A DNA stretch of 64,000 bases from Hydnum rufescens UP504 (Eukaryota; Basidiomycota; Agaricomycetes; Cantharellales; Hydnaceae). Below the pieces are notes generated by a model, which saw only the letters and a program-made list of their open reading frames with translations, searched no databases and was not told the DNA's origin. Positions 8,282 through 41,842 of this stretch are shown here, in pieces (the first letter of the stretch is position 1; every line of letters starts with the position of its first letter). The translations under genes were made by a program, and so were the position numbers. The stretch spans positions 1 to 64,000 of the forward strand of contig MU128928.1 in assembly GCA_014904985.1 (NCBI GenBank), written 5' to 3'.

Positions 8282-8394
8282 GCATGTTGCTCTCATCCAG
8301 TCCACCCTTAATTTTCTTTTTGTTTAATTTCGTTCCATAGATTTTGTTTGGTAGATTTTGTTAAGTACATGATTAGAGCAACCTTAATAAATAA

Positions 8395-9262
8395 TCATTT
8401 TTAACTATGGCCTTATAATCCACACTATAATTTAGAGATAAGGTATTGCTCTATGTAATATTGATTTTGGACAAATCACTAAGGTCAAATTTGATCATTG
8501 TCAATTGACATCAAAGAAAATTAGCCCTCATTAGTGTCAGGGCCACACTGTGACAAGGGCACCAAACAAATGTAAACACAAATAATTCCAGCTAAGTCCG
8601 GTGTAAGTCCAGCTAAGTCCACAAGAATCCAGGCAAGAATGAGATAAGGAGGTTAGGGGTGTCGGAGGAGCAGTCCAGCAGCCTGGAAGGGACTAGGCGG
8701 AAATGAGCATGGCGGTCCTTAAGCTTGTGGAGTCAACTGGATAATACTCAGAGCTGTAGTCTGGAGTAACAGCGGAAATCCTGAGATTATGTAATATGAA
8801 TATGGAATACATGAAGGCTGACCTGTAGTCCGGAGTAACAGCAGAAATCCTGAGAGACCAAAGCTGGGGTCTCTGGACTTTGCTCTTGGACTACTTATAC
8901 ATGATGACTATTACTATGGGGGAGTGATCGCTAAACTGGGGGTGGTTACAAGGGGGCAGGAACAGGAACAGGAACTCAGCCAGGGGGCAAACCGGAAGCA
9001 ATGGGAAATGAAAGGAAATGAAAGGGAAATGAAAGGGAAATGAAACCAAGATAGGGTTGGACCAGAGTCAAACCAGAAGCAAAGTGGACTTGGGCAAAGG
9101 AACTAAGTGGAGGACTGGACTGGAGGTGGGTGGACAAGGACCAGAGTGATCCGGAGTGGACCAGAGTTGACCAGAGTGAGGGGCAAACCCTGACAGTTAG
9201 GCCAGTGAAATGACCTCAAATGGTACTCCTTTTGAGGTCAGCCCAAGTGGCTGACCAAGGTG
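8395..9262 (+). repeat. Repeat R, interrupted by the LTR at 8535
   Basis: The bases before and after the LTR (8395-8534 and 9196-9262) match, in reverse complement, the uninterrupted stretch 40755-40935. The right end reads GGCTGACCAAGGTG, the complement of the CACCTTGGTCAG terminus used by the large foldback elements elsewhere in this window. R may therefore be a small relative of that family. The left limit is uncertain. Confidence 0.65.
8535..9195 (+). repeat. Solo LTR, 661 bp
   Basis: It starts TGTCAGGG and ends CCCTGACA, the inverted ends usual for fungal LTRs. It is flanked by ATTAG (8530-8534) and GTTAG (9196-9200), a 5-bp target duplication with one change. The copy of the surrounding repeat at 40.8 kb lacks it and has a single GTTAG there. 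No primer-binding site or coding region follows. Inside, a 69-bp-spaced repeat of CTGTAGTCYGGAGTAACAGC lies at 8754 and 8823, and a GGAAATGAAA microsatellite at about 9003-9050. Confidence 0.85.
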
Positions 9263-12751: not shown

Positions 12752-14786
12752 CCCCACTCACAGCCCAAGAGCAGGGCCCGGCTCCATAATCAACCTGCCG
12801 GCCTGGCCTACACCTCCTTCCGATCGGACGAGGCTTGGGAACTCCTCAACGTTCCATGCCTCGTCTATTGACCTAGATGCATTCCCTTCAATGTGGCAAG
12901 ATATCCCCCTCTACGACTCATTATCCCGAGAGTCAGCCACCCCTACACCAAACCCCCGCAACAGACTCGCCACCCTCTCGCAACGAGTTTCTACTCTCGG
13001 AGAGGGATTGAGGAACGCTCTGTGGACCCCTGCGAAAGTGCAAAACCCGAATAGGGAGCTCCCAGGATCCTGGGAAATGGGGCCTCTAGTGGAAAGCATG
13101 GTGGGGAGGTATCCTAGTGGAGACTCCCTCACCCTGTGACCTCCAGGCCCTTCTCGTGCTCGTTCGCCTCTCACCAACTACTTGATTGGGCAAGCGAACG
13201 CAACGAGCAGAGGTGACGAGTACCTGGGTCCTGCTTGGGATGCGGTTACAGATACCCCAGCCTTGCTGGCCCCAGGAGCCATGAGAGCCCACGACTACTA
13301 CATGAACCTAGTCAAGATGGCTCCTTCCTCCTTCTCATGCACTCTCTTCCCCCTCGATCCCACGACTCTCCCCCTCTCAGAACCAGAAGGTCCATCCATT
13401 GCCCCGTCGCCTTTGCAAGGCTCCTTGCAGAAAGGAAGTCCAAATCCTCCTGCAGGGGACCCTAAGGGCAAGAATCCTCAGCCCCTGCCCCCTCTGCATC
13501 CGGACAGCTTGAAGGAAGGTGGAGGTGGGCTGCCTGACGACGACGGACCCAGGCATGGGGGAGGAGGCTCGAGTCCTGGGAGACCCCCTAGTGGAGGGCC
13601 CTCAGGTTCGGGTGGTCCTCCAGGCCCTCCAGGCCCCCCTGGCCCTCCAGGCCCCCCTGGCCCTCCTGGACCTCCAGGACCACCAGGGACCCCATTCAAT
13701 GCTCCCCCACCAGGCGTAACCTGGGACAATCGGCTAAAGTGGACAGCTGTGCCTGAATGGGATGGCGACCAGGACACAGCGATCGACTGGCTCTATGAGT
13801 GCAATGATCTCGTGGGTCTGGGTCCTGCAGTAGAAGGCCAAATGGCTCAAATAGCCGCCTTCCAATTCAAAGGGGCCGTTGCTACAGCCTGGCGAGCCCA
13901 TTCAGCACCTGTCAAGCACTCCATCCTGCAGTCCTGGGATAACCTATGGGAATGGGTATTGCACCGATACCTGGGGGAAGCCTGGTACACAGCCCAACGT
14001 ATCAAGTACAACGAAGAAACCTTCCGCAGTGCCGGCCATCCTGACGAATCGCCCGCCAAGTATATCCAGCGGCACATCCTCCTCTCCCACATTTTCCTCA
14101 GGTTCACCCCGAATAGTCCTGAGGAAATGGCATTGGTAATGAACAATGCCCCTACCGAATGGGACATCATGCTAAGATGGAGTGACAGACCCCCAATTGA
14201 ATCTGTCCTGATGTACGCCAAACAGTTCAAGGCGACATTAGTGACACAATGGAGGTCCTCACAGAACTACCGACGCCGTCAGGAATCGAAAAACCCCAAG
14301 AGAGCGAATTTCGTGGTGCAGGAGGATGACAAAGGAAGAAGTGAGGGCGAATCGCTACATTCCTCACACCATGATGACCTGGACAGAGCCTTCTACTACT
14401 CAAGTGAGGAAGTGGAAGGAGGGAAAGCTTCATCAGCAGCCTTCAATGTAGGGAAACATGCAGGGGGCCGATCCTACCGCCCACAACGTCATTTCCACCT
14501 GCCGGGCAAGGTGGCCGATAGTGTGGAAAAGATGTACCCCTATCCCCGGGATGACGCTGTAGTTAGTCATCACAAGCCTAACCAGAAATGCTTTGTGTGC
14601 GGAAGTGAAAAACATTGGGTCAGGGATTGCAAACACTTCGGGGCATATTCTAATTGTCTAGAAAGGAAGACACTTAAAAAGGAGCATAGGCGGTGTAAGC
14701 GGGAAACTGAGGAAGAAACCAGCTACAGTCTGCGAAATGGAAACGAGGACAAAGAAGGGGGATCACAGGGCCAATCCGAACGTTAG
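12735..14786 (+). pseudogene. gag: Gag polyprotein
   Basis: The frame opens at 12735 and is interrupted by a TGA at 13137-13139, then stays open to TAG 14784. The N-terminal part is Pro/Ser rich. A collagen-like run of GPP triplets lies at about 13612-13690. The capsid-type region follows (from WTAVPEWDGD, 13739, through YIQRHILLSHIFLRF, about 14060). A CX2CX4HX4C zinc knuckle (CFVCGSEKHWVRDC, 14589-14630) would bind RNA during packaging. The tail is rich in Lys and Glu. The order capsid then CCHC is standard for Ty3/Gypsy Gag. The single nonsense codon and the switch from the upstream ORF make the copy defective. Confidence 0.85.
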
Positions 14787-16120
14787 GGTCCGAGGGAAGG
14801 AAGGGTCTTTGGATGGGTAGAATTGTCCTGTATAGACGGAGCCTATCCAGACAATAAATGAAGGGGTTGTTAAATCAGGGAATCACACTCTAGGTCCTCC
14901 TCTTGAGAGCCTATAAAAAGTGTGATTAGTGGGGGTTGAGTTTTGGAATTTACCCTGATGCCAGCAGCAGTTCAACTAACTTTTCAACTGGGGATGGGGG
15001 GAAAGATGATAAAAATTCGCATCTCCTGCACTTAATATACATCACAGAAAAATGCTATGTTAATCGGCGGAAAGGTGGGATTAAGGCGAAAATGATGAAA
15101 AAGAAATCAAGTCAAAAGCTTCAAAACTGAAGGAGATATTCAATTAACAAGTCAGAATAGGGGAATATGGCTTAACCAAGGTATTCCTCCTCTCCTACTG
15201 AACAAAATCCCTTGGGGAAAGGTGGAACTGGTCGCCCTAGATGTACCCTCCATCGGACATAGGGTGCCGGAACCATAATTGCCTTTAGTAATCAGAAAAG
15301 CGGAGGTAAAAGTGAAATGAGCCATGGGGAGACTAAATTACAGAACGCCGAGTTCTTATCCGCTCGTTTTGCCCTTGGTACTGTTCGATGCGTATTTTTA
15401 GCGTCTTTCCAGGGGTGATCGTTTCGAACGAATCGGATCAAAACTGATGGAGTTATTCGTGATATACTGAAGAATAGTGTGGAACATGAGGTAAAGTCGA
15501 CCTGGAGGATGCAGTTCTCATCCGATAAACGTGTGTGTGGTACCGTTAGACAGGTATTAATTGTATCTTCCTGGGAGCTGTCTTGCCGAGTCGATCTGAT
15601 CGAAATTGGTGGAGATATTTGCGAAATACTCCTTGAGAGTATTGGAATAGCCCCTATTCAACATGTGACAAGTCCGCGAGTCAAAGTGGGAGTCGTGTTA
15701 CATAATACAAGGTCAAATACTGCCCTTGATGCAATTGGATATGCCGATGGTGATACAATAGATGGACGAAAGTAAGCAAGTTGAATTGCTATAGCCTGGT
15801 TGAACTGGCTTGGAGATAAGTACAAATTTGATGGCCTGTTGAAGTGCCAAGGACAGACAAATAATTGTCTCATATATAGGGTGGAGGAAAAGTAAAAAGG
15901 ACCACAGGTCCTGGGATGTGAATCCATGCTATTTGACGGCCAGAGGAATAACGAGTGTGGATATGAGAGAAATGTAAGAATATGGATTCGTTTGAGGAGG
16001 TAATTGGGCCCAGATGAGGTATGTACATAATGGGATTTTATCCCTCCAACAGCGGTATGAAATGCCCAACTACAAGGCAGCATATTCAGCAATGGTCGAT
16101 GCGATGCCGAATTTTTAGAT
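14787..16120 (+). other. Non-coding spacer between gag and protease
   Basis: Unlike the rest of the element this stretch has TAA and TAG as well as TGA stops in every frame. It contains two degenerate units about 160 bp apart (15377 and 15538) that start GGTAC(T/C)GTT and, in the first, include GATCAAAACTGATGGAGTTA. The same motif occurs several times in the unrelated elements at 44426-49614 and 51250-52841. It could be an older insertion, but no target duplication was found. Confidence 0.5.
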
Positions 16121-17528
16121 ATGGGGCAGATGAAACTAGCTTCATCATCTAGCCCCTCTGTACCCCTTGGGAAGCCCACGTACATAGAGACACACCTCGA
16201 CTTATTGCATAATGTAAATATAGCAATGAGTAATATACTGCTTCCCCCTCCCGTAAAAGTCCCCTTGGATCTGCCGAAGAAGCTGCCAGAGAAACGAACT
16301 CCTGAGGACCTCAAAAAGATGCATCGGAAAGTCGCAGCCACGGCAACGATGTCGATGCCCATCAGGGGCCCTCTGCCCGGATCTCGAGAGGCACCGAACG
16401 ACCTTCCAGTGAAGGTCATTCGTTGTCAAAAAGCTAGGACTACGCCCCCAGGGAAATCTGCCCTCGGAATTACAGCTCTCAGCGATGTACGGGGGTCACT
16501 TAGGGTCTCTTTCAAGCCTGGAAATACAGCTACGACTGGATTCCGGCGCTGAAATCACCCTGATATCGGAGGAATGCTACAATGCCCTAGAGCTCCGCCC
16601 GAAACTACAAAAGGGAATGAAACTTAGCCTCTTCAAGCTCACCAACCAGGCAAAGATCCTGGGCTTTATAAACCTTCGCATCTTCATGCCCACGACGAAT
16701 AACCGAGTCCTGGAATTCGTCGAAGAAGCCTACGTGATCCCAGGCATGAATGTTCCAGTACTACTAGGAGAAGACTTTCAGGTCAATTACGAAGTCTCGG
16801 TACTGAGGACAGCACAGGAGACATGCCTGGCGATTAACCAGCCAGGGGAACAGTTCAATGTACGCGCCTACTCGACTCCCTTTTCACCAGAAAAGTTCCA
16901 AGTCCGGCCCCGCCATCCTCCAGAGATAAAAAATCGTGCCACATACCTAGCTGCTTCCAGGAACCCTACCAACGACCAAGAACACTGACGCACGCCCAGC
17001 TTGCTGAAAGCTGCAAGGGACGTGAGGATCCGTTCTGGTTGGGTCACCAGGGTTCCCGTGGAAGGTCCGGCTAAGGGACACGACGAATGGTTCATGGAGA
17101 GGGTCACGCTCTCCACGAGCAATGGTTGCTTCCTGGCAGCCCCTTTGATGCTGCTTAGATCGGAGGAGCTTATCATACTGGTAGCCAATACATCCCCCTC
17201 AGCGGAATGGATATGCAAGGGCGATGTACTAGGTGTACTGCATGATCCAGAGCAATACTTTGATGGAGCCAAGAACGATGAGTGGACGCAGTGCTTGAGA
17301 GCCTATGCCCACGTAGTACAGAAGATCGCTTGGGGATCATTAGGGGACAGGGACCTATCCGATCAAGTGCTGGCGAAGTCACGAGCGCTGGAGATTCCTC
17401 CTGAACCTGACGATCCAGACAAGCTGTGGGGCCCCAAGACGTCAGAACCCGCGGACCTGACAACGTATGAATCGAAGAAGCTGGAGGAGCTTATAGACAT
17501 AGCTCCAGACGCCCCTTCGGACATATGA
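16121..17528 (+). pseudogene. pol: Pol, protease and linker
   Basis: The frame upstream of 16480 (GKSALGITALSDV) shifts by one base near 16483 into the protease frame. LRLDSGAEITLISEE (about 16530-16575) is the retropepsin active site with catalytic Asp in D-S-G. VIPGMNVPVLLGEDF (about 16738-16780) is the conserved second half with the LLG motif. TGA at 16986 and 17526 interrupt the linker that leads to the reverse transcriptase, and both are in frame with the flanking sequence. The aspartic protease would cleave the Gag-Pol polyprotein. As it stands it cannot be read through without suppression of two stops and a frameshift. Confidence 0.85.
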
Positions 17529-18722
17529 GCGAAAACACTGAAGCTGATCAGAAGACACATCCAGGCATTCGGTTTCGATGATTGCCTGGGGACATTGGAT
17601 ACGATCGCCAAGATCCGCACAAAAGAGGAGGCTCACCCAGTCTCCATGCCGATGTACAGGGCCTCCCCAGCGAAAAGGCTGGTGATCGACGAGCAGATGG
17701 ATAAATGGATTTGTCAGGAAGTAGTGGAACCCTCAAAAAGCCCTTGGGCTGCTCCTGTAGTAATAGCATATAGAAACAGGAAGCCGAGGTTCTGTGTAGA
17801 CTACAGGAAACTCAACGCCATGACTATACCAGACGAGTTCCCAATCCCACGGCAAACTGAAATCCTGCAAGCCCTGTCCGGATTGCAGGTTTTGTCTGCC
17901 CTTGATGCGCTAGTGGGATTTCATCAGATGACGATGGATGAGGACGATAAAGAGAAGACAGCTTTTCATTCGCATCAAGGGCTCTGGCAGTTCAAACGGA
18001 TGCCCTTTGGCCTCAGAAATGGCCCCTCCATTTTCCAAAGGATGATGCAATCTATCCTAGCCCCTTTTCTGTGGATATTCTCGCTAGTCTACATAGACGA
18101 TATAGTGGTGTACTCGAAATCATACGAGGAGCACCTGGAGCATCTCAACCAAGTCCTCCAGGCTTGTGCAGAAGCCAAGCTGACTCTAGTGCCAAATAAA
18201 TGTCATTTCATGTATACCTCCATCCTGCTACTAGGACAAAAAGTCTCCTGGCTGGGGCTGTCAACGCACAAGGAAAAAATCAAAGCTGTTACAGGCTTGG
18301 CCTGCCCACATAATAAAGCCACTCTACAAACATTCTTGGGAATGGCCGTCTATTTCTCACACTACATACCCCACTATTCAGAGCGGGCTGCGCCATTGTT
18401 CAAACTATTACGAAAAAGCACGAGCTGGACCTGGGGGGCAGAACAGGAACGAGCCTTCGAAGACGTTAAGGAAGGACTCATCTTGGCCCCCGTACTGGGG
18501 CACGCGATGCCTGGAAAACCGTACTGCATATACTCTGATGCCTCTGACGTAGCGATGGGAGCTAGTCTACAGCAGGTACAGCCCATAGCTCTATGAGATC
18601 TGAAAGGCACGAAGGTCTATGATAAGGTCATAGATGCTCATGCCAAGGGCGAGCTGGTCCCAAAACTAGCCCGTCAAGTCTTGAAGAATACAGACGATGT
18701 ACCCAATCCAGGTTCTTGGGCC
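17529..18722 (+). pseudogene. pol: Pol, reverse transcriptase and N-terminal RNase H
   Basis: A long open frame (17529-18593) carries the reverse-transcriptase blocks in order: FCVDYRKLNAMTIPDEFPIP (about 17791), ALDALVGFHQM, FKRMPFGLRNGPSIFQR (about 17993), and the catalytic LVYIDDIVVYSKS (about 18085). The thumb/connection segment with LGMAVYFSHYIPHYS follows. The RNase H domain starts at YCIYSDASDVAMGASLQQV (about 18523). A TGA at 18594 (former Arg) is followed by in-frame sequence to 18722, where a DNA element interrupts the domain. The RT and RNase H would copy the element's RNA and remove the template strand. Confidence 0.9.
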
Positions 18723-19239
18723 GAAAGCGCACAATAGGGACACTACTTTGGACCTCTTAGGCTGGCTTCCACTATGCAGGAAGGGACCTAAGAGGTCTCA
18801 GACTGCTAAGTAACCACAATGCCAACAGAGGCTGCTCACAGGGTCTGACCCTAGGGTAGCTCATGGAGCCTCATTTTATTGTCCATTGGAGCTCCTGGCT
18901 TCATGCATAGAAGCTCTGACAGTGCAGCAATCTGTTTATTGCAGCTGCTTTAAGGCAGTATTGGAGCTGCTCACAGGCTGTTAATACTATTGTAGCTGCC
19001 CTGGAACTCCATCCCATAGAGAATCAGAGCTGCTCATCTTCATGTAGGCTGCTGTTAATGGCCCAAGGAGCAGCTCCTCCTACAGCAGCTTACTATTATT
19101 GATATCTTGAGTTGCTCATTTCTCCATTCAGGAGCTGCTCATTTCACAGCAGCTGCTTGTCTCAGCACTGCTGTAGCAGCTGCTTGTCTCGTAGCGCTCT
19201 GCCTAGCAGCTGCTTGTCTCCTAGCAGCTGCTTGTTGAG

Positions 19240-19560
19240 GGTTGGGGACTGTTGGGGGTTAGGGTTAGGGTTGGATTGGGGTTGTTGGGGTTGGAGTTGA
19301 CATGGTACAGGTTGGAAGTCCCCCCCCACAGCACTCCCACAGCTGCTTGTCCCACAGCAGCTGCTTGTCCACAAGAGCTAGCATGTTGAGGGTTGGGGAC
19401 TGTTGGGGGGGTTAGGGTTAGGGTTGGGCTGGTTGGGGTTTGTTGAGGGTTGGAGTTTCACATGGTACAGGTTGGAAAGTCTACCCCAATGTCAGGTAGT
19501 ATAGTTGATGGTTGGGGGACTGTTAGGGGTTGGGGTTTAGGGTTAGGGTTGGAATTGGCT
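19240..19560 (+). repeat. Telomere-like GGGTTAGGGTTAGGGTT patches
   Basis: Three short patches (about 19256, 19408, 19527) of two TTAGGG units lie within a larger 140-bp repeat that also contains GTTGAGGGTTGGGGACTGTT and CATGGTACAGGTTGGAA. They are internal to the inserted element. Confidence 0.7.
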
Positions 19561-19647
19561 GGGTGTATGTCTACCCCTGGTTGGGGGCTGCTGACTAATC
19601 ACCCTTACATGTGCTGCTGTAAGTATGATTAGTCACCAGAAATGTTC

Positions 19648-19725
19648 CAATGGCAGGATTTGAACCTGTGACCTCATTGTAGGGCCTGGGATTTTGGCAG
19701 TTTAGACCACTGGACCTTCAACCCC
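19648..19725 (-). other. tRNA-like (SINE-type) promoter block
   Basis: On the minus strand a box A-like TGGTCTAAACTG (19698-19709) and a perfect box B GGTTCAAATCC (19656-19666) lie about 32 bases apart. The acceptor stem cannot be paired convincingly, so this is a tRNA-derived pol III promoter or tRNA relic rather than a functional tRNA gene. Confidence 0.45.
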
Positions 19726-20653
19726 CTCCCACCCACCCATGATTTTTTGTACTACAAGTAGGTGCATTCAAGCCTAAGGTGTATCAGCTAGTTATGAAGT
19801 AGATTGGAGCTGCTATGGAATGGAAAGGAGCTGCTGCTGGCACTAAATGTCAGTAGCTGCATGCTGATATAGCAGCTGATTATTGGTCATTATAAGAGCT
19901 GCTGGCTCTCAGAGGTGCTGGAAGCACAGCCACATATTGGCTCAGCAGAGCTTATGAGCAGCTCTTTGGATGTTATATCAGCTGCTATAGAAGTCATAGG
20001 AGCTGCTGGCTCTGAATCTCAGCAGCTGCATACCATATAGCAGCTGATTACTGTTCATTATTGGAGCTGCTCATTCTCAATATACCAGCAGCTGCTAGGA
20101 GCACAGCCACATACCAGCTTTTCTGATGATATATCAGCTGCTATAGAAGTCATAGGAGCTGCTGGCTCTGAATCTCAGCAGCTGCATGCCATATGGCACC
20201 TGATTACTGTTCATTATAGGAGCTGCTCATTCTCAATATACCAGCAGCTGCTAGGAGCACAGCCACATACCAGCTTTTCTGATGATATATCAGCTACTTT
20301 GGGATGGATAGGAGGTGCTGACTCTGAGTCTTAGTAGCTGCATGGGCACATAGCAGCTGATTATTGTTCATTATAAGAGCTGCTAGCTCTGAGGGTAGCA
20401 GCTGCTGCTGTAAGCACAGCCACACAGCCACAAATCAGGACCTATGAAGAGCTCTTCTGATGATATTGCAGCTACTATAGCATGGATTGGAGCAGCTGGC
20501 TGTCAGTATGACAGCAGGTGCTAGAAGAAAGCCCTGATAGCAGCTGAGTGCTGGTGATTGCAGGAGCTGCTGGATATCAGTGCTGGACCTCTTAGGTCCC
20601 TTCCTGTGTAGTGAAAGCCAACCTAAGAGGTCAAAACTTGTTTCCCTGGGCTG

Positions 20654-21690
20654 GAAAGTGTAGAAGACACAATCATCAATGTCGAGTGAGTGATCACCTA
20701 TTGGAGCAGATCTCTGAAGTCAGCTGAAAGGAACTACTCAGTGACCGAAAGGGAAGCTCTGGGAGTTAAGGAAGCACTAGTGCAATTCCAACTGTTTATC
20801 AAAGGTGAAAAGAACATAGTGATCACAGATCACGCGGCCCTACAGTGGGCCCAAACCTACGAGAATGCCAACAGGCGTCTTGCGGCGTGGGGGGCAGTGT
20901 TCGCAGCGTACCCAGGCTTGGATATAGTACATTGAGCAGGAGTCATACACTCGAACGTAGATCCGCTCTCCAGGCTGCGACAAATCCCGCCACATCAATC
21001 GCCTGTTGAAGACAACTCCCCGGCTTTACCAAGCCAACTCCCTGTGCAACCCCTATTCGCGTGGGGAGACGTTGTAGAAAGGAGACCAGCAGAATGAGCA
21101 GCATTTCTATCGACATGAGCACAGGCCAAAAGGAGGTTGGAAGGGATACCTCCAACAACAGCAGATGAGCTAGAAGTAGCAGCGAGGTGGAGGGGTAAGA
21201 CGTCCAATCCCCCTGGTTGAGAATGGATGCCCTGGACACTGGATATTTCCATCAGCCCCACATGAACAGAAGCCTTCGTTCAAGGATATCAGGACGATCC
21301 CAGCTTCAAGCAGCCATGGAAGGAAGCCGTCGACAACAAAGAGGAGCTTTCAGCAGCACAACGCTTCTATCGATCAGAGGAGGGCCTTCTCATCTTCCAC
21401 GACGCCAATTGGGTTGCCTGCTTATGCGTACCCAAGTCAGAGGTGAGGAAAATAATCCAAGATTCTCATGAGTCGCCCTGGGAAGCAGCACACACAGGGT
21501 CCTCCAGGCTGTTTCACAAGCTAGCCATGAGATTTTACTGGCCCAGAATGTGGGCTGACATTGTAGAATTTACAAGAACATGCGACGTCTGCCAAAAGAC
21601 CAAGTCAGACAAATGTGGCCCTGTGGGAAAGCTACACCCCCACGTGATCCCGCTGCTTCCATTTGAAGTAGTTACGACTAGATCTGATTA
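20654..21690 (+). pseudogene. pol: Pol, C-terminal RNase H and integrase zinc-binding domain
   Basis: The frame resumes after the insertion with VITYWSRSLKSAERNYSVTE and the RNase H end (IVITDHAALQWAQTYENANR, about 20815). It then runs through a variable linker to the integrase HHCC domain, ending in CDVCQKTKSDK (about 21580). Stops at 20687, 20933, 21095, 21116, 21218 and 21263 are all TGA in the same frame, as if six Arg CGA codons had decayed. A frameshift near 21680 separates this part from the catalytic core. Confidence 0.85.
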
Positions 21691-22760
21691 TGGGCCTCCC
21701 AAAGTTGGAGGGGTTCGATGCAGTATTAGTGATCATAGACAAGCTTACAAAGTTCATCCAGTACATCCCCACTACTTCCAACTTAAAGCAGGAGGGGTTT
21801 GCGAAGCTATTCATGCGACACCTGGTTCTGAAATACGGTATCCCCCACCAAATGATTGCCGATCAAGACGCCAGATGGGCCAAGTCTTTCTGGGTGTTGG
21901 TGGCCAAGCACTTAGACCTGGGCCTACTGCTCTCGACTTCACATCACCCCCAAATGGATGGGCAGACCGAAAAGGCTAATGACATGCTAGAGGTAGCATT
22001 ACGAGCGTATACCGCGGGCAATCGTAGCTCCTGGGCCCAGTGGCTAGGGACACTAGCGATGGCCCACAATGCTACGCCACACTCCTCCACGGGCTATTCA
22101 CCCTTCTTCCTATTGCATGGGTATGCACCACAGATGGAAGCAGTGGCAATAGACCCAGTAAAGAGAGGAATCACCCAGCTCGAGCCCAATGGCGTAGCAG
22201 CAACAGCCTTTATCAACGAGCTCGAGGTGCACCAATCCCAAGCAAGGGACACTTTAGTACGAGCCCAAGCCAGGCAAGCCAAAGCCTACAATCTTAAACA
22301 ATGCAACAAGGAATTCAAAGAAGGGGATGAGGTTCTAGTGAACCCTCATTCCTTGGAGCTAGTGGACGTACAAGGGACAGGGAGAAAGCTAGTACAATGT
22401 CACATAGGCCCTTTCCTGGTCTCAGAAAAGATCAACCCAGTAGTATATTGCCTCCAGATACCGCCTGAGTATAAGATGCACCCCGTTATAAATATACAAC
22501 ATCTAACGAAATACTACCACAATGACCAGGCGGAAGAACGAGCAAAGCTCCCAGAAATGAGAGAATTAGCTGCAGAAGAAGAGTACAAAGTAGAAAGAAT
22601 AGTCGGGCATCAATACAATCCACGGAAACGAAGAAGAGAGTATCTTGTAAGATGGAAGGGCTACGGGCCAGAGCACAATACCTTTGAGTCGGAACCCGGG
22701 CTGCGGAATGCTTTCTCCAGGCTCAGGGAGTATCGCAGGACCCTGGAGGAGTGTGCCTAG
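21690..22760 (+). pseudogene. pol: Pol, integrase catalytic core and chromodomain
   Basis: The frame is open for 356 codons to TAG 22758. GLPKLEGFDAVLVIIDKLTK opens the core. The second catalytic Asp (ADQDARW, about 21858) and the Glu (DGQTEKAN, about 21960) are 35 residues apart, giving DD35E. The GPY-type region with HIGPFLVSEKI (about 22402) precedes a chromodomain (YKVERIVGHQ...YLVRWKGYGPEHNTFE, about 22582-22700) with the conserved aromatic residues. The integrase would insert the cDNA, and the chromodomain is expected to direct it to marked chromatin. This is the best preserved part of the element. Confidence 0.92.
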
Positions 22761-23180
22761 AGTACTTGCAGACCCCACGAGGCAGCTGTGGAGCTCCCCT
22801 ACCCCCATGTCCGCAACTTAAAAGCCCCTGGCTCCCTTGATCTCCTCTTCCCCACTTCCTAATTGCCTCTCTCCCCGTGTTCTCGCTTACTCCCTTTCCC
22901 AGTCCTCCCTTTACCAGCAGCTAACCCCTCCGACAGTACTTATGCAGCATCCAGGCCCCAGAAGACATAAGGGCATCAGGCGAGGTTGCTGCTATGCCAT
23001 GCCTGGGGAGGGTATGGATCCCTTGGATCCCTACTATGCCCAATACAGAGACAAAGAGGATAACCCCGAAAGGTGCCCTGCCGAATACCTATCACTTGAG
23101 AGCTGCGGGTATTTTTACGTCTACAGCCTAACTACTCTGAACCTCACCGGAGCCTTTCCTCGAGTCCAGGGCCAAGCTCC

Positions 23181-23262
23181 CAGGCTGGTCAGTCACATAG
23201 GGGACCTAATTTAGGTACCACTTTCGGGGCAGAAAATGGTACCTAATAGGTCCCCCAGACCT
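23181..23262 (+). repeat. Left terminal inverted repeat (A type)
   Basis: It starts CAGGCTGGTCAGTCA and contains an inner hairpin, GACCTAATTTAGGTACCA pairing with TGGTACCTAATAGGTC. The same A-type end occurs at 40940 and 56973. Confidence 0.85.
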
Positions 23263-23331
23263 TACGGCCGAAATCAGGCTATTCCAATTCAGTTTTTGGG
23301 CCATCTATCGGCCAATCCATGGCTGTGCCAG

Positions 23332-23450
23332 ATTATATATTTATTTATTATTATTTGTTTGCTATTTATTATTATTATTATTATTATTATATACATATTA
23401 TACTATATCCATATTATCCCCCCCCCCCTGGGGTCTGCCACCACAGGGGG
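23332..23450. repeat. AT-rich run and CCCCCTGGGG patch
   Basis: A TTATTATTA run (23335-23415) is followed by a C-run/G-run palindromic patch. The same order occurs at 57130-57230 and, interrupted by a small transposon, at 41080-41890. Confidence 0.7.
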
Positions 23451-23646
23451 GGATGGTTTATTGCGGGTCATGTGCCCACATATACCCACTGTACCCTCCG
23501 CAGCAAGTGCGGTCGGGGGCCGGTTCCTTTTGGGCACTCCCTTGAGGGGTCAGTCTTCATTTGTGGGGGTTCGTTTGTAATTATCGTTCGCCATGTCTCG
23601 TTCGGCCGGTTCTGCTTGGGGGCTCATGGGGATTCTGGTTCAGGAT

Positions 23647-23762
23647 CTAGAGAAATAAATAATAAAATATTAGTGCAACAGTAATGCAGTGCAAAAAGAG
23701 CAGCTTATGCTGCTCTTTTTGCACCACAACAATAAGAAATAAAAAAATAAAAGAAAACATAC
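23647..23762 (-). other. Intron-like unit L3
   Basis: 116 nt on the minus strand. Donor GTATGT, branch-like CACTAATAT, acceptor TTTCTCTAG. A perfect hairpin (23689-23724, 16-bp stem, 4-nt loop) sits in the middle. It is preceded by the exon hairpin CCCCACACC...GGTGTGGGG. Confidence 0.7.
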
Positions 23763-23954
23763 GTTATAGTACCCCACACCCACTGCAGCGGTGTGGGGTA
23801 CTGAGGCCATGGGCTCTGGCTCGTACGTATGTACAGTGGTTCGTATGGCAGTTCATACGGGGGCTCGCACGGGTGCCCCGTCGTTCGGGCATCGATAAGG
23901 GGAGTTACAGGGGGGGGGTTTGCGTCGGTATTCATTCACAGGGGATGTTGAAAC

Positions 23955-24059
23955 CTACAGAATAAAACTTGTAAATTAGTTAAGAATCAAATACCACGCA
24001 AAAAGAGCAGCTTTTGCTGCTCTTTTTGCGTGGCTGTAGCTACTGGGCTGGGGACTTAC
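23955..24059 (-). other. Intron-like unit L2
   Basis: 105 nt on the minus strand. Donor GTAAGT, branch TTAACTAAT, acceptor TTCTGTAG. Hairpin 23994-24033 (18-bp stem, loop AAAA). The exon hairpin ACCACACACCCGCC...GGCAGGTGTGTGGT ends 10 nt before the donor. Confidence 0.75.
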
Positions 24060-24109
24060 CTTATATAGGACCACACACCTGCCATGGCGGGTGTGTGGTT
24101 CCTGGGACC

Positions 24110-24365
24110 TCATTTGGCGTGGTGCCATATGTTGCATCATTGGCATGGTACCGTAGGTCGCGTCGTTGGCGCATTGGCGCATTGGTGTACGTCGCATCAT
24201 TGGTGCAGTACTGTAGGTCACGTCATTGGGGTGTTGGGGTGGGTTGTATCGTTGGTGCGTTGCCGTAGGTCGCGTCATTGGTGCGGTACCGTAGGTCGCG
24301 TCATTGGGGTGTTGGCGCGTATTGCATCGTTGGCGCATTGCCATACGTCACGTTGTTTGGCATGC
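24110..24365. repeat. Minisatellite of GTAGGTCGCGTCATTGG units
   Basis: About nine degenerate units of 20-30 bp built on CGTAGGTCGCGTCATTGGTG. The complement of the same array is at 63800-64000, and CpG-poor relatives are at 42530-42690 and 57850-57990. Confidence 0.75.
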
Positions 24366-24438
24366 CTTTGCTTGGGGCATTGCCGTTTGGGCCCTCGTTT
24401 CGCGTGTTTTCATTGTGCCTTGGACCCCAGGTCTCAAT

Positions 24439-24539
24439 CTAGAAAAATACAAAATATGTTAGTAAAAAGGTTCAAAGGGGCACAAAAAGAGCAGCGCTGC
24501 TCTTTTTGTGCTGTTGTATCTACTAGGGGAAACACTCAC
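24439..24539 (-). other. Intron-like unit L1
   Basis: 101 nt on the minus strand. Donor GTGAGT, branch TTTACTAACA, acceptor TTTTTCTAG. The hairpin at 24480-24511 is a 32-nt loopless palindrome. The counterpart at 63622-63722 has the same length and signals. Confidence 0.78.
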
Positions 24540-24639
24540 CTTGTGACCACACCCCCGCAGCAGCAGGTGTGTGGTTGTGTGCTTGCCTTTCCAGGCGGTT
24601 GCTTGTTTTGGTTGCGGAGATGCGAAGGAAGATACAAAC

Positions 24640-25262
24640 TCAACACCGGCAATTGCCAGTATTTAAGAAGCACCCAGTGCTGATGCTACAAGCACAGTAC
24701 ACATTAATAGTAAGCATGTAGATGCAAAATAAATACTATATAATAAATATTTGTCCAAGAAAATTCTAAGAAGAAGAAGATAATGAGTCAGAGCTCAATA
24801 AGGTGTGATATGGCTAATTGCAAAGTGGATTGGGCCACTTCTATGCATCAGAATTGGCCAAAATTTGAATATATTGATGGTATATATGCACTCTACATTA
24901 TATTGGACGTTCTGGGCATTTTTCAATTTTTCATGCCTTCAATTCCCTAAATAGGGAATTGAAGGTGTGAAAAATTGAAAAATGCCCAGAACGTCCAATA
25001 TAACTTGTTGTCCATGTAGAGTGCATATATACCATCAATATATTCAAATTTCGGCCAATTCTGATGCATAGAAGTGGCCCAATCCACTTTGCAATTAGCC
25101 ATATCACACCTTATTGAGCTCTGACTCATTATCTTCTTCTTCTTAGAATTTTCTTGGACAAATATTTATTATATAGTATTTATTTTGCATCTACATGCTT
25201 ACTATTAATGTGTACTGTGCTTGTAGCACCAGCACTTGGGCGCTTCTTGAGTATCGGCAGTT
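24640..25262. repeat. Central palindrome of the foldback element
   Basis: The arms pair about 24950.5 (AATTCCCTAAATAGGGAATT). They are nearly identical over the inner 250 bp and diverge outward. Each arm encodes the same short frame beginning MSQSSIRCDMANCKVDW, reading toward the centre. The left one is broken by an internal deletion near 24895. Arrays on both sides are oriented away from here, so a two-way promoter is a reasonable inference. Confidence 0.85.
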
Positions 25263-25377
25263 GCCAGCATTGAATTTCACAACTACACAGCCACATCCTA
25301 AGGCAACACACACGACCACCACATGACCCCATGACCCCGTGACCACACCCCCGCTGCTGTGGGTGTGTGGTCATAAG

Positions 25378-25479
25378 GTAAGTTTCCATTTTAGTAGGTA
25401 CAACGGCGCAAAAAGAGTAGCGAAAGCTACTCTTTTTGTGCTGGTTTTAATTTCTTTACTAACAACTTTATTATTCTAG
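25378..25479 (+). other. Intron-like unit R1
   Basis: 102 nt. Donor AAG/GTAAGT, perfect branch TTACTAACAA, acceptor TTATTCTAG. The hairpin 25406-25441 has a 16-bp stem (one G-T pair) and a GAAA loop. The exon hairpin (CCACACCCCCGC...) lies just upstream. The 162-nt exon that follows encodes MALSQVPTRRPNLPQMRTC in one frame. Confidence 0.8.
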
Positions 25480-25641
25480 GATATGGCTTTGTCCCAGGTG
25501 CCAACAAGGAGGCCCAACCTGCCACAAATGAGGACCTGCGGAGCAAGCCCCCCAGAACAACAAAGGAGACCGGCAAACAACAATGCCAAACGAAGGGACG
25601 AACCACACACCCGCAGTAGCGGGTGTGTGGTTCTATACAAG

Positions 25642-25736
25642 GTATGTAATGTACCCCCGACAATGCAAAAAGAGCAGCAACAGCTGCTCTTTTTGTGTTG
25701 CTTTTATTTTTTGAACTAATAATATTTTATTCTAAG
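25642..25736 (+). other. Intron-like unit R2
   Basis: 95 nt. Donor AAG/GTATGT, branch-like GAACTAATAA, acceptor TTCTAAG (one base longer than the TTCTAG of its neighbours). Hairpin core AAAAAGAGCAGC with loop AACA. The exon hairpin ACCACACACCCGC/AGTA/GCGGGTGTGTGGT lies directly before the donor. Confidence 0.75.
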
Positions 25737-25849
25737 TATCGCCACAAATGAACCTGTGAAGCAAGCCAGAATGACAGCACCCCCGCAAACGATGCACCAC
25801 ACAAAGAGAACCACACACCCACTACTGTGTGTGTGTGGTTTTATACTCA

Positions 25850-25943
25850 GTATGTAATGTACCCCCGATGGTGCAAAAAGAGCAGTGAAAGCTGCTCTTT
25901 TTGCATCGTTTTTCATTTTTTAACTAATAATTTTTCATTCTAG
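25850..25943 (+). other. Intron-like unit R3
   Basis: 94 nt. Donor GTATGT, branch TTAACTAATAA, acceptor CATTCTAG. The hairpin has a GAAA loop closed by a T-G wobble. The preceding exon is 113 nt. Confidence 0.75.
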
Positions 25944-26060
25944 GTATCCTCACAAATGGTGACCCACAGAGCAAGCCCACCACACCTGCAAGGGGGACTG
26001 GCGAACGACGGCACACCACGAACCATACACCCACAGTAGTGGGTATGTGGTTCTATCTAT

Positions 26061-26154
26061 GTATGTAATGCACCCCTGACAATGCAAAAAGAGCAGTGAA
26101 AGCTGCTCTTTTTGCATCGCTTTTAATTTTTTAACTAATGATTTCTTATTCTAG
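26061..26154 (+). other. Intron-like unit R4
   Basis: 94 nt. Donor GTATGT, branch TTAACTAATGA, acceptor TTATTCTAG, hairpin with GAAA loop. The preceding exon is 117 nt. Confidence 0.75.
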
Positions 26155-26280
26155 GTATTGTCACAAATGGAGACCCACAAAGCAAGCCCCCCAGAATGAC
26201 AACACCCCGCGAACGACGATGCACCACATGAAGAGAACCACACACCTGCAGTAGTGGGTGTGTGGTTCTATCTATGCAAG

Positions 26281-26374
26281 GTATGTAACACACCCCCGAC
26301 AATGCAAAAAGAGCAGTGAAAGCTGCTCTTTTTGCGTCACTTATAATTTTTTAACTAATAATTTTTTATTCTAG
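26281..26374 (+). other. Intron-like unit R5
   Basis: 94 nt. Donor AAG/GTATGT, branch TTAACTAATAA, acceptor TTATTCTAG, hairpin with GAAA loop. The preceding exon is 126 nt. Confidence 0.75.
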
Positions 26375-26500
26375 GTATCACCACAAGTGAAGACCTGCAA
26401 AGTGAGCCCCCCGGAACAACAACATTGCCATGAACGATGACGTGCTGAACAAAGAGACAAACCACACACCCACAGTAGCAGGTGTGTGGTTCTATACATG

Positions 26501-26600
26501 GTATGTAATGTAGTGCACCCCCAACGGCACAAAAAGAGCTGCAAAGGCAGCTCTTTTTGCATTGCTTTAACTTTTACTAATCTAAAATTTTGTATTCTAG
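26501..26600 (+). other. Intron-like unit R6
   Basis: 100 nt. Donor GTATGT, branch-like TTACTAATC, acceptor TGTATTCTAG. The hairpin uses a shortened stem AAAAAGAGCTGC/GCAGCTCTTTTT. The counterpart at 53475-53574 is also 100 nt. Confidence 0.75.
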
Positions 26601-26736
26601 ATCTTCCTTCCCCCCAAATGAGTACGTGCCCGAAAACCCCCAACCCACTGTATGGAAAACCAGCAGTCAAGGGTACGTGACCCCGGGCAAAAATGAGTAC
26701 CACACACCCGCCAATGCGGGTGTGTGGTATTACAAG

Positions 26737-26848
26737 GTATTTTTTTTAAACTTTCTACATCTACAGTGACGCCAAAGGAGCAGCGCAAGCTGCTCCTCCG
26801 GCATCACTTCGAATTTTTTTACTAACGTACATTATCATTCCATTCTAG
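26737..26848 (+). other. Intron-like unit R7
   Basis: 112 nt. Donor AAG/GTATTT, branch TTACTAACG, acceptor CCATTCTAG. The hairpin variant is GGAGCAGC/GCAA/GCTGCTCC, with outer pairing of TGACGCC to GGCATCA. The GCAA loop is again of the GNRA type. Confidence 0.72.
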
Positions 26849-27055
26849 GATCAAATTTAAAGCTCCCAAAACGACGACAGACAGCTGCAACCCCCGAACG
26901 ACCCACACAACGGTGAACCACCAAGCCACGCCCGCCCAAATGGCTACCAACAAGCCGGGCGAGCCCCCATCCCAGCCCCAAGGCAGAAATGCCCAGTACC
27001 ACATAGCCCCCTCAGTGGGGTGTGGTCTTTTATTTTTATTTTTATTTTTATTTAC

Positions 27056-27142
27056 AAGTGGTGCAAAAAGAGCAGTGATAGCTGCTCTTTTTGTGCTGCT
27101 TTGAATTTCCTCCTTACTATTTTGCCACCTGACACCCCAGCA
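27056..27142 (+). other. Degenerate intron-like unit R8
   Basis: The hairpin GTGCAAAAAGAGCAG...CTGCTCTTTTTGTGC is intact and CCTTACTATT and CACCCCAG could be branch point and acceptor, but no GTATGT donor remains (ACAAGTGGTGC). It follows a run of TTTTTA units. Confidence 0.45.
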
Positions 27143-27564
27143 ACATGTCCCCTGAACCTGCATCTGAACACTGGATGACCCCCCGTCCTAAGTCCCGAGG
27201 AAACAACAAACGGTACCACACACCTGCCCTAGCGGGTGTGTGGTATGTTTTTTTAATTGAATTTTTAAATAAATAAATACATTAGTTCATAAGAACAAAA
27301 CACGAGACTGCCAAATGAAAACAGCCCCCACCTGGTGTATATAGTGATAATGATAATAAATAAATAACTATAAATGAAACACCAGAGGGGGGAATATAAT
27401 AATAATTACTGGTGATTATCCCCGATAAGCCCGCATGGCCCACTGTCCTGCAAGTCTGAGATTCTCTCCAAGTCCCAGTTTCAGCCAATTTTCGGCCAAT
27501 TTTCGGCCATTTTGGCCAATTCTGGGCCAGGAGGTGAAATCATAAAAATGGCCATTTTGGCCAG

Positions 27565-27648
27565 AATAGTGATGGGACCTACTTAGGTACCATTATCTGC
27601 CCCGGAAGTGGTACCTAACTAGGTAGGCTTAGATGACTGACCAAGGTG
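27565..27648 (-). repeat. Right terminal inverted repeat (B type)
   Basis: Read from outside it begins CACCTTGGTCAGTCATCTAA, followed by an inner hairpin TTAGGTACCA...TGGTACCTAA. The same B-type end starts further copies at 50843, 55064 and 58456. Confidence 0.85.
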
Positions 27649-30034
27649 AAGCTCCATTTGCTAAAGATCCCTATGGCTACAGATGGGAGCACTTGGATGA
27701 ATGGGGACGGCTGGGAAAGTTCAAATGGACATATCACACCCAGTTGCTTCCTAAGAACTTCCCCTTCCCATTGCACCGTGCCTTCATTCCCTTCGACATC
27801 AGCCAGTTCAACTTCGACCCTCACATTCACCTCCTCCAAGCACGGGGGCCAAACCCTCAACTTTGCTCCCTGTCGATCAAATTCTTGAATGATGCCCGGG
27901 ACGCTAGCCACGTGATGCTGCACTGTATTAGACATATAGACCAGATTACGAGCCGATTTCACATCCTCCTTCCCTCTGCCTATGATCAGGACTGGCATTT
28001 CGGCTCTATGTGGATGTATCTCCTACAGCAGGGATTGACCCCAGCCCCAGCTTGGAAAGCCATCCACGTCGCCCAGGAGATTCGAAGGAGAGTACTCAAC
28101 ACGACAGGGTTCACCAATATGGCCTTCCACGTCATATTATACCTCATCTGCTTCAAGGAACAGCTCCACCCTCTGCAGTTCTGGACGACCATATGTCTCG
28201 CGTGGCTCATCATATCAAAACAGGATGCCTGCTCCCAACTCATCAGTGAGGGGCTTGCGCAATTAGGAGTCCTGGTATGGGCGATGGAAATTGAGAACAA
28301 GAACCCTCCCCTTGAGCTTCTTCCCAGGGGGATGACTCAGAACTCGCCCTTGTGGATTTCGGCTGAACGGGAGATCCGTGAAAAGCACCCCTCCTGGAGA
28401 ATGATGGACTCGTACCCCTGCAAGGTTGTTCAGGAGAAATTCAAGCAGAATGTCCGAGAGCAGTTCTCTCATCGTTTGGTGAGCCCACCTGAATATGCAT
28501 GGGTGATGAAGAAAAACCACCCGTGGGAAACGAGGCACCCTGGTCCTTACTACTGCCATCATCCAGCCTACTTCCACAAAGCCAAGGGCCCGCCTGGTGA
28601 AGTCTACCTGGAGGGGCTGCTCCGATGGCTGTCGCAAATCCAGGAAGGCAACTATCTGCCAGTACTGAAGGAGCTGCAGGAATGCCTGGGGGAGGAGACA
28701 TTGCCTCTGACCAAGTGGGCCAATCATGAATTCTCTCCTCCCCCCCCTGGCCTTCCTCCACCAGAATTATCCGATGTGTCATGAATGGATGGAATGCAAA
28801 GTACATGAATGGCACAAGCCCGAACCTTTCCCCAAACCCACCTTACGGACTGAGTTGGCGGCGCACCTAATCAACCCCTCTGCCTGCACTCATGGCGCTC
28901 CCCCTGCCCTGCTGGAGCACCTTGACGACATAGACCCCTGTTACCCCTCCACTCGAGGTGCAGCAAGAAGGTCCCATGCGGAATCGCCAGAGAGAGACGA
29001 GTACGCCAGCGACAGGATGCTCCCTCCTATCCTGAGGAAGAACTTGAACCGTACGAGGACTTTGCATCTCAGGAGGATAACGATTTCACCCTGCCAGAAG
29101 GGGCCACTCTCCTGTCCGACGAGTCCCCCACCAAGGAATCAGGGAACGTGCCCCCTACAACCGACCCTGATGAAGTCTGGGGAGAAACCAAGGTGCAAAT
29201 GGAGAGGTTCCCAGTGGAATTATCCCCATTTGTGTACTTGAACTCCCCAGCGCAATTGGAGGAGGAACTAGTCAAACGCTATGGTTCTGGGGTCAAAGAA
29301 TGGCTCTATGAAGAACCCCAACTCATCCTGGTCTTCACACATTGAGACCGTGCCCGCAGAGCCCTAGAGAGCCAAAAGGGGGCAGCGAAGTTCTACCCTT
29401 CAGAGCCCTCAGCATGTGCCCGGCCATACAAGGAAGGAAAATATCATACGTGGAGTGGGGAAGTCCAAAACCAGATTTTGGAGACTGTCAAGATATGCCG
29501 CATGGGGCGTAAGAACGAATGTCCTATCCCAGAAATGGTTCTTGTAAGCGGTAGCCCAGCTCGCCCCCCTGGCACGACGTTCAAATCGGCCGACCTCATG
29601 CGGGTTCTCTACCCCCAAGGCCCCCCTCAGATTTTTGGGACCTCCCAAAGCCTCATGTTGCGATACTTAATCTCACCCCTAATCGCGATCCAATATCTTA
29701 AGCAGAGGGTGAATCATCTCAAACCTATCAAACATCCATTCACCGCCCAGATCATTAAGGCCACAAACGAGGTATTAGGGGTACTCGAAAGACATCTATC
29801 ATACGAAGATCCCATCAAATTCAACATGCAAATCCTGTTCCTAGGTCCCCACCATGACAGTCCTCATATGGCTAGCCCATGCCATCCTGGAAGTCGACCC
29901 CACCTCTATTGGAGCCTGTGGCATGTATGCCAGTGAACAATTCAGATGGAACAGGTGGTTTGAAAGGTATGAGATTACATTAGATGACCTAGGTATCGAA
30001 GACCTTGGCCTCCATGGAACAAGAATCATAGTGT

Positions 30035-40935: not shown

Positions 40936-41114
40936 TGCTCAGCCTGGTCAGTCACATGGGGAACCTAATTTAGGTACCATTTTCAGGGCAGAAAATGGTA
41001 CCTAATAGGTCCCCCAGACAGTATGGCTGAAATATGGCCATTCCAATTCAGTTTTTGGCCCATTCATGGCTGTGCTAGATTATATATTTATTTATTATTA
41101 TTATATATACTATA

Positions 41115-41842
41115 CAGTCTTTCACCACTCAATGAGCCAGAATTTGTATTTCCAGTCTCATTCATGTAAATCTTGGAGATTTTGCCTCAAATTTTCACCA
41201 GCACATAGAGGAGGTCCTTGTGCATTACTCTGTGTAATAGCATAGTAATAGAGTGGGAATTGAGGGAGGATGAGAGAAATTACAAAGTAGGGGCTATTTC
41301 AGCCATTCCCAGTCCCTGAGCCACCTGGTTGTGTACCAACCTACTGTTCATCAATGTTGCTCTCACCTTCTGAACTTCTGCCATAATGAGTAGGCAACTA
41401 GTTAAGGAGCAGTGAGTGGGTACATGGGCAGTGGAGGCTCAGGCTGGGGAATTGAGATGAAGAGATTGAATGGTGATTATTACTGTGTTTATCCAACAAC
41501 ATGTTTTATTATCAAAACAGATAATGAAGCTTCACATTAATAAGCAAAATTCTTCCTTTATGTGCCCTTAAGGACTTAAATATGTTTTGGGGGATTTGTG
41601 GGCTACAGGGAACAAGAAAAACCTGTTGAGGAATTGCATCTTGTTCAAAAATCACTCAATTCAGCCTTAATGCCTAGCATGCAGGTTTTCTGTGCATCCA
41701 TTTCACTTCAAATTTGGCGCAATGATTCCTTACATGTGTCCCTCCAAGATGCAAAAAAAAGTGAAAGGATATCTTTTAAATTGAGGGAGATATAGGGAGA
41801 TGGCTCATTGACTGGTGTGGCTCATTGAGTGGTGAAAGACTG
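41115..41842. mobile_element. Tc1/mariner-type miniature element
   Basis: It has perfect 25-bp inverted ends beginning CAGTCTTTCACCACTCAATG and is flanked by TA on both sides (41113-41114 and 41843-41844), the mark of Tc1/mariner insertion. It is 728 bp long with no transposase frame, so it is non-autonomous. It interrupts the AT-rich run of the surrounding element. Confidence 0.85.

What the first reader, a model, noticed from the sequence alone, without database searches (positions are those of the whole stretch)
23181..27648. Transposon-like element built from two divergent arrays of spliceosomal-intron-like units
Ten units in one 4.5-kb element have a fungal donor (GTATGT, GTAAGT, GTGAGT), a branch point (TTACTAAC or TTAACTAAT) and a TTCTAG-type acceptor in the right order and spacing. 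Three face left on the minus strand and seven face right on the plus strand, away from a central palindrome. The exon-like pieces are repeats of one another and hardly coding. I know of introner elements, which create single introns, but not of elements carrying tandem intron arrays. The element is complete and has a 7-bp target duplication, so it behaves as a mobile unit. It may express two multiply spliced non-coding RNAs.
Basis: partly seen in the sequence, partly recalled or inferred. Interest (0 to 1): 0.92.

Follow-up and report, generated by a model that had tools for sequence, protein, structure and literature searches.

The report
Fungal transposon carrying spliceosomal intron arrays
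A fungus, probably of the mushroom class, carries many copies of a jumping DNA element that seems to make no protein but holds two outward-facing rows of well-kept introns, which suggests that being spliced is itself what this genetic parasite preserves.

Summary
Window 23181-27648 is a complete 4,468-bp element with inverted ends and an exact 7-bp target duplication; three intron-like units face left and seven right from a 99% central palindrome. The exact intron hairpin occurs 1,491 times in the genome and the exact 15-bp ends 716 times. Twelve of 12 end-to-end copies checked have the same divergent layout. Between units diverged by 10% or more, the donor GT, branch TAA and acceptor AG change 0.11-0.32 times as often as the same letters elsewhere in the unit. 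The intron hairpin keeps pairing through compensatory changes at 12 of 18 predicted pairs. Exons hold 11% T, introns 44%. No coding frame is conserved. One 15-bp end is shared with elements that carry a KDZ transposase, and the 7-bp duplication and CA..TG ends match published Kyakuja elements. I read it as a non-autonomous, KDZ-mobilised transposon whose conserved cargo is two multi-intron non-coding transcription units. Splicing itself is not shown (no RNA data), and its use to the element is inference. Seven literature searches showed no element of this design.

The parts
23174..23180 (.). target site duplication AAGCTCC, left copy
23181..23246 (+). left terminal inverted repeat, begins CAGGCTGGTCAGTCA
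   Evidence: (I6)
23647..23762 (-). left-array intron 3 (outermost)
23955..24059 (-). left-array intron 2
24439..24539 (-). left-array intron 1 (nearest centre), GTGAGT...TTACTAAC...TTCTAG
24540..24672 (-). first exon/leader of left transcription unit (inferred)
24673..24898 (.). left arm of central palindrome, 99% complementary to right arm; bidirectional promoter region (inferred)
25014..25239 (.). right arm of central palindrome
25240..25377 (+). first exon/leader of right transcription unit (inferred)
25378..25479 (+). right-array intron 1, GTAAGT...TTACTAAC...TTCTAG
25642..25736 (+). right-array intron 2; acceptor altered (TTCTAAG)
   Evidence: not taken by the automatic caller
25850..25943 (+). 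right-array intron 3
26061..26154 (+). right-array intron 4
26281..26374 (+). right-array intron 5
26501..26600 (+). right-array intron 6
26737..26848 (+). right-array intron 7, weak donor GTATTT
   Evidence: not taken by the automatic caller
27060..27096 (+). eighth right-hand intron-type hairpin, no recognisable donor (degenerate or terminal unit)
27583..27648 (-). right terminal inverted repeat, begins CACCTTGGTCAGTCA on the minus strand
   Evidence: (I6)
27649..27655 (.). target site duplication AAGCTCC, right copy

Best explanation
This is a non-autonomous DNA transposon of a fungus, probably an agaricomycete. It is moved in trans by a KDZ-type (Kyakuja-like) transposase that recognises ends of the type CAGGCTGGTCAGTCA. 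Its body is two non-coding, multi-intron transcription units that run outward from a central palindrome. Each repeat unit is an exon ending in a CCACACACC hairpin, then a spliceosomal intron of about 100 nt holding a second hairpin between donor and branch site. Shown: the anatomy, the mobility marks, the sharing of an end with KDZ elements, constraint on the splice signals and pairing constraint on the intron hairpin. Inferred: that the palindrome is the promoter, that the RNAs are spliced, and that the intron hairpin folds out some 35-45 nt so that donor and branch site come to a spacing usual for short fungal introns (recalled). Proposed use (least certain, about 0.3 on its own): efficient splicing makes the element's RNA pass as host mRNA, which keeps the element transcribed and accessible and avoids RNA interference triggered by poorly spliced transposon transcripts.
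For: Mobility: TSDs and inverted ends; 357+359 exact ends, control 1+2 (these include ends of KDZ and foldback relatives); the 169-bp right end is 95-98% identical in the other 39 matches, 40 scored of 580 first-look candidates. KDZ link: L050 has a KDZ domain (PF18758, E 2.4e-34) inside an end CAGGCTGGTCAGTCA. Of 17 long copies of that end region, ends on seven contigs (C5, C57, C76, C109, C130, C157, C391; the C391 match lacks the first 25 bp) have a KDZ domain 1.5-2.7 kb inside, by comparison. Among 94 ends on C1-C19, 1 of 20 listed KDZ and 0 of 16 listed hAT domains lie within 5 kb inside an end. Published Kyakuja has 7-bp TSDs and CA..TG termini (PMC12730594, passages). Splicing signals: (278 of 354, shuffle 1.3%); decoy-controlled conservation, ratios 0.11-0.32 in the three bins at 10% divergence or more, bootstrap upper limits 0.40 or less; 40 diverged units aligned; AG depleted between hairpin and branch site, 23 seen, 57 expected (200 shuffles 44-72), T 10.7% in exons and 44.4% in introns. 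Hairpin: 12 of 18 intron-hairpin pairs with compensatory changes; an outer pair not used for finding the hairpins is kept in 82%, permuted 55%. Layout: minus units left, plus units right in 12 of 12 end pairs checked. No shared frame.
Against: No RNA data. No intron-less junction copies in the 0.30 Mb held, nor genome-wide for one junction type. Exact 7-bp TSD in only 4 of 11 plain-size end pairs, two of which share one flank; 6 of 11 have none. The KDZ-type pair at C200 has no TSD, and the CACCTT end was not seen on a KDZ-bearing copy. Of 20 listed KDZ domains on C1-C19 only 1 lies inside a listed end, so most KDZ genes there belong to other families. In pairs under 5% diverged the splice sites are not slower than non-CpG background. 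One copy (L032) gives a 400-aa spliced frame, 0 of 100 shuffles as long, and six of the other 18 arrays reach 7 of 100 or fewer, so a weak excess of open frame exists, though relatives do not share the frame. AG between branch site and acceptor is not significantly depleted (17, expected 24, range 13-39).
Confidence: 0.7

Rival explanations
1. Satellite-like hairpin repeats inside a DNA transposon. The units spread by tandem duplication and gene conversion, the hairpins matter as DNA structure, and the splice-like motifs are hitch-hikers of a young repeat.
For: Arrays are tandem and vary in unit number. The window's palindrome arms are 99% alike. Both hairpins recur in the units.
Against: Homogenisation keeps all positions alike, yet splice letters change only 0.11-0.32 times as often as the same letters nearby in units diverged 10% or more. 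Exon and intron composition differ sharply and AG is depleted before the branch site. Splice strand and exon-hairpin strand agree in 251 of 276 units, 6 disagree.
Confidence: 0.11
2. The spliced exons encode a repetitive, fast-changing protein, and these copies are decayed genes.
For: Exon lengths modulo 3 are uneven (69/60/34 of 163). Window right-array exons of 162, 117, 126 and 126 nt keep frame. L032 has a 400-aa spliced frame (0 of 100 shuffles) and six of the other 18 arrays reach 7 of 100 or fewer.
Against: The other 18 of 19 arrays lie inside the range of 100 shuffles. Frames and junction positions differ between relatives. Exon indels are multiples of 3 in 21%, intron indels in 23%; substitution distances fall smoothly (73,001/64,812/57,353 for 0/1/2 modulo 3 in exons; 66,020/60,892/56,919 in introns). 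T-poor exons make long frames easy.
Confidence: 0.07
3. The array is a production line for intron-borne small RNAs: the intron hairpin is the product and the exons are only carriers, as in host genes of small nucleolar RNAs (recalled).
For: The intron hairpin is among the best conserved parts and covaries, while array exons diverge.
Against: The exon hairpin is kept as well. A stem of about 18-20 pairs with a 4-base loop is short for Dicer (recalled). 20 Rfam matches up to E 1, none at its gathering score. Splice signals outside the hairpin are also conserved.
Confidence: 0.12

Closest known systems
KDZ transposons, Kyakuja group (Laccaria bicolor Kyakuja-1_LB, -2_LB; PMC12730594, passages seen)
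   Same: 7-bp TSD, 5'-CA..TG-3' termini; one terminal 15-mer shared with KDZ-bearing elements in this genome
   Different: no transposase gene; clear terminal inverted repeats (the paper says its Kyakuja families have none); body made of intron arrays
Introners / introner-like elements (PMC9860276, part of the abstract and passages seen)
   Same: multi-copy non-autonomous elements that carry their own splice signals; most of them consistent with DNA transposition
   Different: an introner makes one intron in a host gene; here several introns per strand lie inside one non-coding element with its own exons. In the passages seen, Pezizomycotina is the fungal group named and 'basidiomycot' does not occur in the text
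Stwintrons in Hypoxylaceae and Xylariaceae (PMC12403724, PMC8469720; search listings with start of abstract only)
   Same: multiplied fungal introns
   Different: nested introns in genes, not tandem arrays with exons inside a transposon
Foldback-type element with the same ends in this genome (L048)
   Same: same terminal repeats, large inverted arms
   Different: no intron hairpin found, arms of about 1.7 kb in pieces, interrupted by a retroelement that I read as copia-like from its frames, not searched

Membership tests
KDZ (Kyakuja) DNA transposon | 7-bp target site duplication | tested here: met
   exact in window, L009, L022, L024 (the last two share a flank), i.e. 4 of 11 plain-size pairs; L013 8 bp with one mismatch; 6 of 11 none; L021 (7.7 kb) 8 bp
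KDZ (Kyakuja) DNA transposon | 5'-CA..TG-3' termini | tested here: met
   11 of 11 plain-size pairs; the genome-wide list has CA by construction of the pattern
KDZ (Kyakuja) DNA transposon | encodes a KDZ transposase | tested here: not met
   no long frame in the element; a passenger at most
KDZ (Kyakuja) DNA transposon | ends shared with transposase-bearing members | tested here: met
   for the CAGGCT end only; not seen for the CACCTT end
KDZ (Kyakuja) DNA transposon | sub-group Kyakuja rather than Dileera or Zisupton | not tested
   no reference sequences compared
KDZ (Kyakuja) DNA transposon | no terminal inverted repeats (as published for two Laccaria families) | tested here: not met
   61-bp imperfect inverted ends, 80%
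Introner | the element is a single intron in a host gene | tested here: not met
   splice sites are internal; 0 of 8 places that looked alone or nearly alone proved to be a single intron
Introner | carries its own donor, branch site and acceptor | tested here: met
Spliceosomal intron | conserved GT, branch A and AG in order | tested here: met
Spliceosomal intron | removed from RNA | not testable with these tools
   no RNA data
MITE | short (under about 1 kb, recalled) non-coding element with terminal inverted repeats | tested here: not met
   11 plain-size pairs are 4.4-5.1 kb

The most novel reading that the evidence does not exclude
A lineage of selfish DNA whose only maintained product is splicing: arrays of introns are kept under selection across diverging families because being spliced, not coding for anything, lets the element be transcribed, escape silencing and move. 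If so, spliceosomal introns can be the cargo of a transposon in their own right and can multiply as tandem exon-intron units, a route of intron multiplication unlike single-intron introners.
Probability: 0.32. Interest if true: 0.92.

Novelty: new variant of a known kind. Interest (0 to 1): 0.77.

Why it matters
Introners tie single introns to DNA transposons. This element ties whole multi-intron, apparently non-coding transcription units to one, many times over in one genome and with clear constraint on the splice signals. It gives a direct test of whether splicing helps a transposon (expression, export, escape from RNA interference linked to stalled spliceosomes) and a natural library of more than a thousand related introns with varied donors, branch sites and stems for work on fungal splicing.

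Tried and rejected
Protein-coding exons: thought unlikely, with the L032 frame told as an exception. Single introners in genes: 8 places that looked alone or nearly alone all held at least two hairpins; one of them (C1:331827) had a listed neighbour. hAT as the mobilising family: 90 hAT-dimer matches, 0 of the 16 on C1-C19 within 5 kb inside a listed end, KDZ 1 of 20 (numbers typed). Rfam: 20 matches up to E 1, none at its gathering score. Fossil spliced copies: none. TSD for a KDZ-type pair at C200: none. A first TSD script failed because I put IUPAC letters into a plain regular expression; one search repeated it. Viral contigs with the KDZ piece: nothing. Homologues of the frame beside the element: two proteins without a telling name. 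Host: 'agaricomycete' is inferred from the few named, 29-35% identical relatives of a neighbouring NACHT-type protein (Clavulina, Suillus, Chiua, Imleria, Hygrophoropsis, Dichomitus; the closest, up to 77%, are unnamed) and from at least 154 KDZ matches (150 of 584 candidates scored). Cryptic donors in exons: 2 sense, 27 antisense, but GT is rarer on the sense side too (392, 1565), so not used.

Weak points of my counts: donors were sought by GT-like patterns, so the 100% G there is by construction; hairpins were found with up to 3 substitutions per arm, at least 10 of 13 pairs, and 120 nt from a locus end; one search used 110 and one search used 130 of 267 reference units, and pairs are not independent; one search aligned 40 of 62 representatives and is loose between exon hairpin and donor; RNAalifold predicted only 4 exon-hairpin pairs, none with compensatory change, and the compensating exon stems that I noticed (e.g. 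L035, L033) are by eye; L022 aligns poorly; loci L001-L008 were dropped as duplicates.
Full report
What is there. The element at 23181-27648 is bounded by inverted ends (CAGGCTGGTCAGTCA and, on the other strand, CACCTTGGTCAGTCA) and by AAGCTCC on both sides. It lies between frames that I read as a Ty3-type retroelement (13140 to 22760; not searched) and a 383-aa frame without a Pfam match. A palindrome with 226-nt arms, 99% complementary, sits in the middle. Left of it three introns lie on the minus strand and right of it seven on the plus strand.

The repeat unit. Each unit is an exon that ends in a hairpin (CCACACACC..GGTGTGTGG), then, mostly 7-17 nt later, a donor (most often GTATGT, GTAAGT or GTGAGT after AAG), a second hairpin (GCAAAAAGAGCAG..CTGCTCTTTTTGC), a branch site (ACTAAY) and an acceptor that is TTCTAG in 166 of 267. 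In these 267 units the median intron is 102 nt (middle half 94-105); 163 internal exons have a median of 144 nt.

More than chance. In 40 held sources (39 loci of this genome plus the window) I found 354 intron hairpins. 278 have donor, branch site and acceptor in order in at least one orientation, 276 of them in exactly one; 76 do not. Shuffled flanks give 1.3%. In 251 of the 276 the exon hairpin lies upstream on the same strand only; in 6 on the other strand only; in 18 it was not found; in 1 on both. The exact hairpin occurs at 1,491 places in the 63.2-Mb genome and the pattern read backwards at none. The exact 15-bp ends occur 357 and 359 times, control 1 and 2.

Constraint. Reference units were compared with other hairpin places, intact or not. 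Donor GT, branch TAA and acceptor AG were compared with the same letters elsewhere in the unit. For pairs diverged 10-20%, 20-30% and 30% or more the ratios are 0.23, 0.23, 0.21 (GT), 0.21, 0.18, 0.20 (TAA) and 0.11, 0.22, 0.32 (AG), with upper bootstrap limits of 0.40 or less; below 10% they are 0.14, 0.21 and 0.44. A second measure uses whole motifs and non-CpG sites only: in pairs under 5% the motifs are no slower than the rest (donor 0.005, branch 0.015, acceptor 0.008, other 0.004-0.009), at 5-10% only the acceptor is clearly slower, and at 10-40% the motifs run at about one seventh to two thirds of the background. Beyond 40% (49 pairs) the acceptor is hardly slower (0.32, other 0.41-0.42). 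So constraint between families is clear. Whether recent copies drift freely is not settled, since the two measures differ there.

Structure and composition. RNAalifold on 40 diverged units predicts 18 pairs in the intron hairpin, 12 with compensatory changes, and 4 in the exon hairpin, none with such changes. A pair outside the arms used for searching (position -3) is kept in 82%, 55% after permutation, with four pair types. Three intron-bearing pieces fold with z-scores of -5.5, -2.7 and -3.7, an exon piece with -2.5. Exons without their hairpin hold 10.7% T, introns 44.4%; AG is seen 23 times, 57 expected, between hairpin and branch site, while between branch site and acceptor 17 seen and 24 expected is within the shuffles.

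Layout across copies. In 12 of 12 end pairs checked, the called units on the left are minus and those on the right plus (10, L011 and L021). Mean identity per 100 bp among 10 copies is 0.96-0.98 at the outermost bins, 0.87-0.93 around the centre and 0.61-0.85 in the right array; L022 aligns poorly and lowers the means. L011 has two CACCTT ends and a repeated right arm, as if arms recombine through the palindrome.

Not coding. Of 19 arrays spliced in silico, 18 have longest frames inside the range of 100 shuffles, six of them near its top (7 of 100 or fewer). L032 plus (400 aa) exceeds all 100, but the frame is not kept in relatives. Indels in exons are multiples of 3 in 21%, in introns in 23%.

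How it moves. L050 holds a KDZ transposase domain (PF18758) inside the same terminal 15 bp. On C1-C19, 1 of 20 listed KDZ domains and 0 of 16 listed hAT domains lie within 5 kb inside one of 94 listed ends. Published Kyakuja elements have 7-bp TSDs and CA..TG termini but no TIRs (PMC12730594, passages). I could not confirm a TSD on a KDZ-type pair, nor assign the sub-group, nor find the CACCTT end on a KDZ copy.

How it may work. The best reading is a non-autonomous KDZ passenger that is transcribed outward from the palindrome and spliced. Why splicing is kept is open. My choice is that good splicing licenses the transcript and helps it avoid RNA interference set off by stalled spliceosomes, known from Cryptococcus (recalled; search listing only). 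Rivals are small RNAs from the intron hairpins, a satellite-like origin and a decayed protein gene.

Novelty. Seven searches of the held, open-access paper library aimed at such an element listed none that I could recognise by title and abstract; two more served other questions.

Noticed in passing
L048 (G000:C2:140300-148850) 119-8448: Another element with the same ends, long near-perfect inverted arms (about 1.7 kb in pieces) and no intron hairpin found; a retroelement with 240-nt repeats, copia-like by my reading of its frames, lies inside it. A related frame appears in the window near 61724-62269.
   Followed up: partly
window 40940-50857: A more diverged stretch of the same kind: ends at 40940 and 50843 that point the same way, a palindrome near 50490, several units, and 28-bp minisatellites at 44622, 46747 and 49339.
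   Followed up: no
window 52844-64000: Several further, partly broken copies lie close together; by eye the one near 59-61 kb has many single-base insertions and deletions, as if old or poorly assembled.
   Followed up: no
L011 1307-5850: A copy with two CACCTT ends and right-arm sequence on both sides, suggesting recombination through the central palindrome.
   Followed up: partly
window 24673-25239 and 50076-50808: Palindrome arms are 99% alike in the window copy although the copy near 50490 differs from it by 23-24%, which hints at gene conversion between arms; in L010, however, the two arms match the window unequally (96% and 87%).
   Followed up: partly
L032 spliced plus array: A 400-aa frame appears only after in-silico splicing (0 of 100 shuffles as long); not kept in relatives, but worth a peptide check.
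   Followed up: partly
L026 5505-5642: By eye, one copy is inserted inside the intron hairpin of another unit, its CAGGCTGG end directly following TTTTG of the stem.
   Followed up: no
window 56491-56608: ACTTG pentanucleotide array, about 24 copies.
   Followed up: no
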